64,000 nt of DNA from Bacteroidota bacterium (GTDB taxonomy: Bacteria; Bacteroidota; Bacteroidia; B-17B0; Aurantibacillaceae): NCBI GenBank assembly GCA_018267825.1, contig JAFDXR010000003.1, positions 328,952 through 392,951 of the forward strand, given 5' to 3'. A program made the translations under genes and the position numbers. Each line of letters starts with the position of its first letter. Position 1 is the stretch's first letter. A model generated the notes under the pieces. It had not been told where the DNA came from. It was given only the letters and a program-made list of their open reading frames with translations, and searched no databases. Positions 49,268-52,259 of this stretch are shown in pieces.

Positions 49268-49298
49268 GTTGATGTTTTTGTTTTATGGTTTAATTTCT

Positions 49299-49316
49299 GT
49301 TGATGATAACACCAAT
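49299..49316. repeat. REP-like hairpin (imperfect)
   Basis: TTGATG-ATAA-CACCAA at 49300-49315 forms a hairpin with one A-C mismatch. It shares the ATAA/TTAT loop and the GCCC-rich neighbour (as GGGGC on this strand) with the other four repeats in the locus. Confidence 0.6.
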
Positions 49317-49386
49317 GGGGGGGGCGAAAAGGATGGGAAAATTTATATAATCCTGAGGCCTTGCTTCAATTTAAATTCTTTATGCC

Positions 49387-49410
49387 CATGCAGGTGTTAT
49401 CACCTGCATG
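49387..49410. repeat. REP-like hairpin upstream of the RAYT gene
   Basis: CATGCAGGTG and CACCTGCATG form a perfect 10-bp stem around TTAT. It is preceded by GCC and lies 68 bp upstream of the RAYT start. Confidence 0.8.
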
Positions 49411-49477
49411 CCACATTCTTACTGAATTTTACTACGATTTTAAGTGCCGATTCCATCCAGTTGCTGTACTTTCAATC

Positions 49478-50014
49478 ATGGCAAATTTAAGACATAAAAC
49501 CGGTTTATATTTCTTCACAGCAACAAATCTGAATTGGCTCCCCGTGCTTGAATCATCGAATCACAAAAACATTATCATACAAAGCCTCTGCTTCATGGTT
49601 GAACATCAGCGCATTGAAGTATTCGGTTTTGTCATTATGCCCAATCATATACACCTGATATTGAGAATTATTGAACCACATAAAAAGTCCGACATACAAC
49701 GGGATTTCTTAAAATTCACTGCCCAGCGAATCCACTTCAACCTTATTAAAACAAATGACCCTATCCTTGATCTGCTTGTTGTGAGATCAAAAGACAGGAT
49801 GGTACAGGTATGGGAACGCCATGCATTTTGGTTCGAATTGGATACGACCAATACACTGCTCCAGAAGCTGCGATACATTCATAACAATCCCTTGCAGGAA
49901 AAATGGAGATTAGCCGAGCAGGAAGAAGATTATTATTATTCCAGTGCTGCATTCTATAAAGGAGGCGACAATGAGTTTCCTTTTCTTAAACATTATGAGA
50001 GCTTATTTGATTGA
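49478..50014 (+). CDS. REP-associated tyrosine transposase (RAYT)
   Basis: A 178-residue Y1 transposase of the IS200/IS605-related RAYT group. Its HUH motif is MPNHIHLILR. Nearby is GLYFFTATNLNW; later comes LRYIHNNPLQEKWRL, the family's helix that carries the catalytic Tyr region, and a Tyr-rich DYYYSSAAFY. RAYT enzymes cut and join single-stranded REP hairpins, so the nearby repeats are its likely substrates. The start is the ATG at 49478. An earlier in-frame start at 49361 runs through a REP hairpin and is rejected. Codon use and length look intact. Confidence 0.88.
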   Translation: MANLRHKTGLYFFTATNLNWLPVLESSNHKNIIIQSLCFMVEHQRIEVFGFVIMPNHIHLILRIIEPHKKSDIQRDFLKFTAQRIHFNLIKTNDPILDLLVVRSKDRMVQVWERHAFWFELDTTNTLLQKLRYIHNNPLQEKWRLAEQEEDYYYSSAAFYKGGDNEFPFLKHYESLFD

Positions 50015-50016
50015 GA

Positions 50017-50040
50017 CCTGTTGGTGATAACACCAACAGG
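50017..50040. repeat. REP-like hairpin after the RAYT gene
   Basis: CCTGTTGGTG and CACCAACAGG form a perfect 10-bp stem around ATAA, immediately after the RAYT stop and followed by GGC. The stem differs from the upstream copy by compensating changes. Confidence 0.8.
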
Positions 50041-50163
50041 GGCATGAAAATGGAGATTAGCCGAGCAGGAAGAAGATTATTATTATTCCAGTGCTGCATT
50101 CTATAGAGGAAGCGACAATGAGTTTCCTTTTCTTAAGCATTATGGGAACTTATTTGATTGAGA

Positions 50164-50187
50164 CCTGTTGGTGATAACACCAACAGG
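50164..50187. repeat. REP-like hairpin, duplicated copy
   Basis: Identical stem and loop to the copy at 50017 (CCTGTTGGTG-ATAA-CACCAACAGG), 147 bp on. It lies 17 bp before the ATPase gene's 3' end. Confidence 0.8.
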
Positions 50188-50204
50188 GCGCATAAGTCAA
50201 ACTA

Positions 50205-52208
50205 TTACGAGGCCAGCATAACAAGCAATTCCGTAGTTTCCGCAGGTATATTTGGATAAAGCTTACATATCATGTTTATCATTTTATTGTGCAGTTCATT
50301 CTCGTTAGCGAATTTGCTAATTGGCTCAAAGGTCTCTTTCAATCTCTCAAACAAATCATGGCCTCTTATAGTCAAATACCATTCTGGGATATTTAACTCT
50401 ATTTCATTTCCATATCGACATCGAGAAATACTAGTGCTTGTTCGCAAGCTTTTAAATTTTTCAGTCAGTTTATTTAAAACAAAATTCACTGCCTCTTGCG
50501 CTTTATGGCTCTTTATCAAATCATATTGGTTGTCAGTTTCGCTAATTCCCAACTCCCTCATCAGTATGCCATATCGTTCATCTAATAAGTATGTTGCTAG
50601 ATAAATAGGATCGAATACAAAATTCTCTATGCTATAACGACTCTGATTACCATGAACATAAATATGTCTCTCGTCATTATTTTTTAAATCCCAATCAATT
50701 ACTCCATATGCTGTTGTATTCCCTGAATTCCTTATTGCCTTAACAACGTTTATTACCTGATCACAGTTTCCTTTTCCTAAACTATTAGATATAAAGTACA
50801 ATTTATGCTGCATTGCCTTATCAGCGTTTATTTTATCAAATAACTGCTGATAATATTTCAAGTCAGTTGGTCCTTCCACAAATACTTGCCGATGGTTTTG
50901 GTAATCGATCGAAAGATTTGGCAATCCACTAGTCAATGTTTTTAAAGCTTCATCCTTCGAGATTTGCTTTAGTTGTGTAAATGGCACATTAGAAAGTTGA
51001 TAAATTGAATCCTCAGGGGCTAGTGCGATTGTCATTGGCGAATGTGTTGTAATAATTACTTTTATACCTAGTTGCTCTACAAACACTCCATTTAAAACAT
51101 CTATTAAAATTTTAGACATTTCAGGATGTAAGTGTGCGTCAGGCTCGTCTAAAATTATAACATCTGGATATTCAAAATTTCTTTCGTAATATTCTGATGT
51201 AAAAAGCTTAATAACTAATCCAATAATAATCTTTTCCCCCGATGACAAAAACTGAAATGGTATGGGCTTTTCTGTGTCTTTCCTTATAAATTCGTATTGA
51301 ATTTCGGCGGTTGGAGAAAAACTTTTTTCAGTTATTCCCTTAAATTCGTATGGTAGTTTAAATTTCTCAAAGAAACCATTTAAAACCTTCCATGGAGCTT
51401 CATATCTTTGATCAAATTCTTCTCTTGAAAGTGAATTATTTTGTTCCCCGTTTTCTTTTTTCATAAACTGCTGGTAACTATTCTGATACCTTAATTTTAA
51501 ATACGAATAAAAAACTCGTTCCAGCTTCGAGTATATTAAATCCGTCGAATCGTAATATTGCATCGGTATATTTGAATTCATAAAATCCGACATAGTCAAA
51601 TCTGAAAACTTTTTCTCTTGATAATTAGCTACAATGCTAGCAATCTCAAACACGCGCCAATTATTTAATAAATGATCGACTAACCAGTTAATAAGCATGT
51701 TTTCTTCATTCATAGCAATCAACCCTCTTGCTCTAGGCATATTCATTAGCTCCTCTCGACTAAATAATCTACTCTCACAATCAACAAGTGTCTTAAAGTA
51801 ATCCAGACGTCCTGATTCTACTCTCTTTGTTTTCAAAAGAGCGTCTCTTGAAATCTCATTATTATAAAATGCTACAAAAATTTCACCTATTCCATCTCTA
51901 CCATTATTTATTTCCCTATACCTGTTAAAAAAATCTTGCTCTTGATCTCTCATGAGACTTGGAGAAGACAGACCAATATCATGAACAACCAGCGGCTCAG
52001 TATAAATTTTATTATATGCTGGCACTATTTGAATATCGTCAGATTCGATTAGGCGTGATTCGCTTTTCTTTTGTGAGTAGATTTTAAAAAGCTCTACGAG
52101 TTGTGACTTTCCGCTACCATTTTTTCCAGTGATAACTACAAAATTTGGCATCTCGTCAGTCTCAAATTTTGCAAGAGATTTAAATACACTATCAAATTTC
52201 AGTCTCAT
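50205..52208 (-). CDS. AAA15-type ATPase with TOPRIM/DUF4435-like domain
   Basis: A 667-residue stand-alone protein. Walker A GKNGSGKS (residues 28-35), a long coiled-helical insert (~90-310), ABC signature LSSGEK (321-326), Walker B VIILDEPDAHLHPE (350-363) and H-loop TTHSP (387-391) show an AAA15/OLD-type ATPase. The C-terminal part carries EGPTD (445-449), DWD (505-507) and IEN (527-529), the metal-binding layout of a TOPRIM nuclease. The YSIENFVFDP stretch resembles DUF4435, the AriB half of the PARIS anti-phage system. It is visibly AT-rich (sample rows ~28% versus ~45% GC in nrdA), has no partner gene, and is flanked by REP hairpins. It is probably an acquired defence-type gene. Confidence 0.85.
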   Translation of the reverse strand: MRLKFDSVFKSLAKFETDEMPNFVVITGKNGSGKSQLVELFKIYSQKKSESRLIESDDIQIVPAYNKIYTEPLVVHDIGLSSPSLMRDQEQDFFNRYREINNGRDGIGEIFVAFYNNEISRDALLKTKRVESGRLDYFKTLVDCESRLFSREELMNMPRARGLIAMNEENMLINWLVDHLLNNWRVFEIASIVANYQEKKFSDLTMSDFMNSNIPMQYYDSTDLIYSKLERVFYSYLKLRYQNSYQQFMKKENGEQNNSLSREEFDQRYEAPWKVLNGFFEKFKLPYEFKGITEKSFSPTAEIQYEFIRKDTEKPIPFQFLSSGEKIIIGLVIKLFTSEYYERNFEYPDVIILDEPDAHLHPEMSKILIDVLNGVFVEQLGIKVIITTHSPMTIALAPEDSIYQLSNVPFTQLKQISKDEALKTLTSGLPNLSIDYQNHRQVFVEGPTDLKYYQQLFDKINADKAMQHKLYFISNSLGKGNCDQVINVVKAIRNSGNTTAYGVIDWDLKNNDERHIYVHGNQSRYSIENFVFDPIYLATYLLDERYGILMRELGISETDNQYDLIKSHKAQEAVNFVLNKLTEKFKSLRTSTSISRCRYGNEIELNIPEWYLTIRGHDLFERLKETFEPISKFANENELHNKMINMICKLYPNIPAETTELLVMLAS

Positions 52209-52235
52209 AATTAAATTCTATTTAGTATTTACGCC

Positions 52236-52259
52236 CTTGCAGGTGTTATCACCTGCAAG
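52236..52259. repeat. REP-like hairpin right of the ATPase gene
   Basis: CTTGCAGGTG and CACCTGCAAG form a perfect 10-bp stem around TTAT, preceded by GCC. It is 28 bp upstream of the ATPase ATG and 84 bp from the nrdA stop. Confidence 0.8.

What the first reader, a model, noticed from the sequence alone, without database searches (positions are those of the whole stretch)
49299..52259. Five REP-like hairpins with compensating stem changes around a RAYT
Five hairpins share a TTAT/ATAA loop and a GCC flank. Stems alternate between CAGGTG/CACCTG and TTGGTG/CACCAA forms, so both arms change together, which is evidence that the fold is selected. The copies at 49387 and 50017 are inverted around the RAYT gene. 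The copies at 50164 and 52236 bracket the ATPase gene. RAYTs are known to act on REP hairpins, so this could be a mobilisation unit.
Basis: partly seen in the sequence, partly recalled or inferred. Interest (0 to 1): 0.75.

Follow-up and report, generated by a model that had tools for sequence, protein, structure and literature searches.

The report
RAYT gene with its REP hairpins
A small single-stranded-DNA transposase gene sits between inverted copies of a hairpin repeat that this Bacteroidota genome carries at some sixty mostly intergenic sites; it is a REP/RAYT system of a rarely described type, while the neighbouring ATPase gene is most likely a bystander.

Summary
The hairpins are real. 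Four perfect 10-bp/4-nt-loop hairpins lie at 49387, 50017, 50164 and 52236; the fifth (49297) is decayed. Their core GGTGTTATCACC occurs 61 times in the 4.82-Mb genome (reversed control 0), mostly with a 5' GCC tag and mostly between genes. The genome's only RAYT (49478-50014) is predicted to fold like E. coli TnpA-REP. Bacteroidota relatives of this RAYT (37-57% identical) usually carry the same outward-tagged hairpins, with loops that change with the RAYT lineage. This is a REPtron, most like TnpA-Y1 subclass 2.6, whose repeats the literature calls only 'atypical'.

The stem changes are compensatory. They also mark the two ends of a unit: one GCAGG-type and one GTTGG-type hairpin in all six pairs (three independent places), as in E. 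coli Y/Z BIMEs.

The proposed ATPase mobilisation unit is not supported. Its bracketing hairpins have tags pointing inward, the reverse of every unit seen in this genome, and one comes from a 147-bp tandem duplication. The ATPase (33% GC against 45%) has no close homologue in 86 family genomes and looks separately acquired. An empty-site test was impossible: no second genome of the genus is held.

The parts
49297..49325 (-). decayed right-end-type REP hairpin (49297-49318) with its GGC tag at 49323-49325
   Evidence: matches the family with stem mismatches; does not fold better than shuffles
49379..49410 (+). left-end REP of the RAYT unit: TTTATGCC tag and GCAGG-type hairpin 49387-49410
   Evidence: model match
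49478..50014 (+). RAYT (REP-associated tyrosine transposase), 178 aa, HUH = H57/H59, catalytic Tyr133 by homology
   Evidence: NF047646 71.9 bits, below cut-off 80; invariant residues; fold match to 4er8; only RAYT in the genome
50017..50047 (-). right-end REP of the RAYT unit: GTTGG-type hairpin 50017-50040, tag GGCATGA outside
50045..50194 (+). about 147-bp tandem duplicate of the RAYT tail (codons from about 141) plus right-end REP
   Evidence: 96% identical over 142 nt; aligned
50164..50189 (-). second right-end REP (GTTGG type) inside the duplicate; tag faces the ATPase gene
52228..52259 (+). left-end-type REP (TTTACGCC tag, GCAGG-type hairpin 52236-52259) between ATPase and nrdA; tag faces the ATPase gene
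   Evidence: model match
50205..52208 (-). AAA ATPase with DUF4435, defence-type; neighbour, judged not part of the REPtron
   Evidence: GC 33.4% against 44.7%; inward tags on both sides

Best explanation
This is a REPtron: one RAYT (TnpA-REP, an HUH-Tyr single-strand endonuclease) gene inside a pair of inverted, outward-tagged REP hairpins, with its cognate REP population dispersed in the genome. Most likely the RAYT binds the folded single-stranded hairpin in the strand that shows the TTAT loop and the 5' (TTNY)GCC tag, cleaves beside the tag with Tyr133, and joins ends, so copying or moving REP pairs in trans; its own gene is one such unit. Shown here: the repeat family, tag, stem covariation, outward polarity, link with the RAYT clade, predicted fold. 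Inferred: binding, cleavage position and mobility, by analogy with E. coli TnpA-REP. The ATPase gene is not part of the unit.
For: 61 cores against 0 reversed; GCC before the stem in 40 of 46 paired copies; 39 of 46 extragenic against 85% of random positions in ORFs; single RAYT with invariant HUH and Tyr and 4er8 as top fold match; matching hairpins on both sides in 16 of 25 loci of the clade (14 inverted), 2 of 21 distant RAYT loci and 0 of 27 nrdA controls; palindrome in 8 of 9 family genomes with a clade RAYT against 9 of 78 without; loops cluster on the RAYT tree.
Against: No insertion event was observed, for lack of sister strains. NF047646 score is just below its cut-off. Several copies sit in local arrays that could arise by duplication alone. 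G047 has 13 hairpins but only distant RAYTs.
Confidence: 0.87

Rival explanations
1. The ATPase gene is cargo of a REP-bounded mobile unit moved by the RAYT.
For: It lies tightly between two hairpins (17 and about 27 bp away), has a foreign GC content and is absent from relatives.
Against: Tags face inward, the reverse of the RAYT unit and of all short units in this genome; the left hairpin is part of a RAYT-tail duplicate; the three nearest ATPase homologues (about 30% identical) lack hairpins; the ATPase is found once in the genome.
Confidence: 0.05
2. The REPs are now immobile: copies spread long ago, and today change by recombination, tandem duplication and decay, with the RAYT kept for a host role.
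For: Local arrays (four tandem units at C6:8478-9051); a roughly 75-nt body fixed to one REP type; identical REPINs in G048 nested in another repeat; decayed copies.
Against: An intact single-copy RAYT with all catalytic residues, and REPs dispersed over many contigs with unrelated flanks.
Confidence: 0.25
3. The hairpins are transcription terminators or structured RNA elements that happen to lie near the RAYT.
For: They are intergenic and strongly folding; one copy, L033:11982, is followed by a T run.
Against: A run of five T within 12 nt of the hairpin occurs in only 1 of 43 copies on either strand; no Rfam match; the GCC tag and the RAYT-linked loops are not expected.
Confidence: 0.03

Closest known systems
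TnpA-Y1 subclass 2.6 (Bertels group 5) REPtrons of Bacteroidetes (PMC6006769)
   Same: Bacteroidota; about 179 aa; NH[LIV]H and YIH[QN]NP motifs; gene flanked by non-GTAG hairpins with copies elsewhere in the genome.
   Different: WE instead of the consensus WQ; the paper calls the structures weaker and gives no tag in its main text, whereas these are strong perfect hairpins with a GCC tag.
E. coli REPtron with Y/Z REPs and BIMEs (PMC8266576, PMC6006769)
   Same: One RAYT; two REP types in inverted pairs; predicted fold matches 4er8.
   Different: GTAG tag and bulged stems in E. coli; here GCC tag and a perfect 10-bp stem.
Group 3 REPtrons of Stenotrophomonas and Marinomonas (PMC8266576)
   Same: Short perfect palindromes with a specific loop.
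   Different: GTAG tag; other RAYT subclass (2.5).
CGTC-tagged REPs (PMC3733652)
   Same: Tagged palindromic repeats, reported in Bacteroidetes among other phyla.
   Different: Different tag; the paper says they apparently lack a dedicated transposase.

Membership tests
REP-associated tyrosine transposase (RAYT/TnpA-REP) | HUH motif plus catalytic Tyr in a TnpA-IS200-like fold | tested here: met
   H57, H59, Y133 invariant in 22 homologues; 4er8 is the top structural match
REP-associated tyrosine transposase (RAYT/TnpA-REP) | NCBIfam NF047646 curated cut-off (80 bits) | tested here: not met
   71.9 bits; the model is an annotation threshold, not a functional feature
REPtron | RAYT gene flanked by inverted REPs that recur elsewhere in the genome, mostly between genes | tested here: met
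REPtron | canonical 5' GT[AG]G tag | tested here: not met
   tag is GCC in 40 of 46 copies; non-GTAG tags are described for subclass 2.6
REPtron | RAYT cleaves its REP in a strand-specific way | not testable with these tools
   Needs biochemistry
TnpA-Y1 subclass 2.6 | NH[LIV]H, YIH[QN]NP, about 179 aa, Bacteroidetes | tested here: met
   NHIH, YIHNNP, 178 aa; relatives in Bacteroidota
TnpA-Y1 subclass 2.6 | WQ motif | tested here: not met
   WE at W112; a consensus, not an invariant feature
TnpA-Y1 subclass 2.6 | placement by the published subclass profile or tree | not testable with these tools
   Profile and supplementary tables were not available
ATPase-carrying REP mobilisation unit | hairpin tags outward around the cargo | tested here: not met
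   tags at 50187-50189 and 52233-52235 both face the ATPase

The most novel reading that the evidence does not exclude
A Bacteroidota-wide RAYT lineage recognises a GCC-tagged, perfect 10-bp hairpin whose loop co-evolves with the enzyme. In some members the two ends of a unit carry different but self-complementary stems, so that each end folds on itself rather than with its partner (predicted for the C6 and C4 units; a G048 unit with matching stems is predicted to fold into one long hairpin). Stem type would then be a left/right end code.
Probability: 0.3. Interest if true: 0.6.

Novelty: new member of a known kind. Interest (0 to 1): 0.42.

Why it matters
REP/RAYT systems are known mainly from GTAG-tagged repeats, most of all in Proteobacteria. 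The literature searched here says only that Bacteroidetes subclass 2.6 genes have atypical structures. This case gives an explicit tag, stem and loop, a single-RAYT genome with about 60 targets, and natural loop variants paired with their own RAYTs, which makes the question of how RAYTs recognise and co-evolve with REPs testable outside Proteobacteria.

Tried and rejected
ATPase as cargo: rejected on tag polarity. Terminators: rejected, no T tracts. Rfam family: none. Empty-site test: not possible, because the genus holds only this genome and the 3' side of nrdA is not syntenic in the 17 relatives with enough sequence. A sequence search of PDB chains gave nothing; the fold search did. Looking for copies of the REP-linked body without its REP found none over its first 75 nt.

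Full report
Observation. The region 49297-52259 holds four perfect hairpins with a 10-bp stem and a 4-nt loop, at 49387-49410 (+), 50017-50040 (-), 50164-50187 (-) and 52236-52259 (+), and one decayed copy at 49297-49318. In the whole window only one other hairpin, terminator-like, has a stem of at least 9 bp and a 4-nt loop. As single-stranded DNA the four fold at -11.3 to -11.7 kcal/mol with z-scores from -5.4 to -7.8; the decayed one does not beat shuffles. Read so that the loop is TTAT, each has GCC at the 5' foot; at 50164 the GCC is shifted one base into the stem.

Genome-wide family. The 12-base core GGTGTTATCACC occurs 61 times in the 4.82-Mb genome and its reversed control never. Of 59 copies with readable flanks, 46 have at least four more Watson-Crick pairs, and 40 of those have GCC directly before the stem. 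A few bare cores, such as those in L010, L015, L031 and L032, lack the stem and are probably chance matches. A covariance model gave 63 sites at E < 1e-4, adding copies with other loops. Over 43 distinct copies the tag reads T-T-N-Y-G-C-C, with the first T and G, C, C at 39, 38, 37 and 39. Copies are mostly extragenic: 39 of 46 lie outside ORFs of 100 aa or more, whereas 85% of random positions lie inside such ORFs; six of the seven exceptions are an ORF made of the repeat array itself or the over-long start of the RAYT ORF.

Compensating stem changes. On 33 distinct copies five of ten pairs change on both sides; the covariation score is 0.382 against 0.130 shuffled, and every slid register is far lower. 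The rows were selected for pairing, so the percentage paired is biased upward; the variety of pair types (C-G, T-A, A-T, G-C) is harder to explain by that. A further point changes its meaning. In every outward-tagged pair seen in this genome one end is GCAGG-type and the other GTTGG-type: the RAYT unit, four tandem short units at C6:8478-9051 and one at C4:116-252. These are three independent places, so the rule is suggestive, not proven, and in some relatives both ends are alike. The two stem forms are therefore mainly two end types, like Y and Z in E. coli BIMEs. In silico, two such units (from C6 and C4) fold as two separate hairpins, whereas a unit of relative G048 with matching stems folds as one long hairpin; a second G048 unit with differing outer stems folds as two.

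The RAYT. The ORF 49478-50014 is the only RAYT found in the genome. It matches NF047646 at 71.9 bits, under the cut-off of 80. H57, H59, W112, Y133, H135, N137 and P138 are invariant in 22 homologues. The AlphaFold model (pLDDT 94.6) has E. coli TnpA-REP bound to a REP hairpin (4er8) as best PDB match, followed by the ISDra2 and IS608 transposases.

Relatives. Sixteen named Bacteroidota loci (Mucilaginibacter, Runella, Dyadobacter, Pontibacter, Marinigracilibium, Daejeonella and others) and a set of relatives in the same family were examined. Of 25 loci with a RAYT at 37% identity or more, 16 have a matching hairpin on both sides of the gene (14 inverted, two in direct orientation: L048, L049), usually with GCC outside; of 21 more distant ones, 2; of 27 nrdA control loci, 0. 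Loops are TTAT, TTGT, TTTT, TTCT or TCCY/TCCC. They cluster on the RAYT tree: 6 changes, shuffled mean 9.4, none of 200 shuffles as low, although most deep branches are weakly supported. Across 87 family genomes the strict palindrome GTTGGTGNNNNCACCAAC is present in 8 of 9 genomes with a RAYT of this clade and in 9 of 78 without (Fisher p = 3e-6; genomes are related, so this is a guide only).

The ATPase. It is an AAA ATPase with DUF4435, like defence ATPases of the PtuA, AriA and ATPase-Toprim kind. Its GC is 33.4%, against 44.7% with sd 2.6% for 2-kb stretches of the window, and no homologue above 31% identity was found in 86 relatives. It looks acquired on its own. It lies between hairpins, but their tags face it, which is the reverse of every unit. 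The left hairpin belongs to a 147-bp tandem duplicate of the RAYT tail and right-end REP. The simplest reading is RE, [LE-RAYT-RE], RE duplicate, ATPase, LE: the ATPase sits between units. Why it lies there is not known. The nrdA 3' side is not syntenic in the family and no second genome of the genus is held, so an empty site could not be examined.

Mechanism. Inferred from E. coli TnpA-REP (PMC8266576, PMC6006769): the RAYT binds the folded single strand carrying tag and TTAT loop, cuts near the tag, and transfers ends, dispersing REP pairs in trans. In the tail duplicate the repeated segment ends at about GGCAT, just outside the tag, which would fit cutting near the TT/NYGCC junction; this is inference from one event.

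What is known. PMC6006769 describes subclass 2.6 (Bertels group 5): Bacteroidetes, NH[LIV]H, YIH[QN]NP, about 179 aa, flanked by atypical structures without GT[AG]G. The present RAYT fits except for WE instead of WQ. PMC3733652 covers GTAG and CGTC tags, and the main text of PMC2817692 does not mention Bacteroidetes. No searched paper was found to define a GCC tag; supplementary tables could not be read, so this may be listed there. Verdict: a new, well-defined member of a known kind; interest moderate.

Noticed in passing
L162:2340-2604 (own genome contig C27, about 23 kb right of the window): Four direct GCC-tagged hairpins with a TTCT instead of TTAT loop, a different REP family; the genome search found no RAYT of its own for them. 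A relative (G031) has this loop beside its RAYT.
   Followed up: partly
window 50205-52208: Defence-type AAA ATPase with DUF4435, 33% GC, no homologue above 31% identity in 86 family genomes.
   Followed up: partly
L009:4482 and L009:4598; L053:4154: Hairpins whose loop is flipped relative to the GCC tag (tag with ATAA, or AAAA, instead of TTAT, or TTTT), as if the hairpin had inverted on its foot.
   Followed up: no
L017, L021, L022, L025, L028, L029, L033: A roughly 75-nt body (GTAAAACATGTATCC...AGAAAGAAGG) always attached to a GTTGG-type REP, often next to another repeat (GAATAAATGTTCGGCTCCTCCGGAGCC) that also occurs alone.
   Followed up: partly
L053 (Daejeonella sp. H1SJ63): Only a RAYT tail (residues 129-176) plus a hairpin is matched, resembling the window's tail-plus-REP duplicate.
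   Followed up: no
L143, L145, L146, L147, L148 (genome G048): Identical REPIN copies nested in a GTCGAGCGAAGT-type repeat, several of them at contig ends.
   Followed up: partly
G047 (family relative): Thirteen strict hairpins, mostly with a TTGT loop, but only distant RAYTs (about 33% identical): orphan REPs or a diverged enzyme.
   Followed up: no
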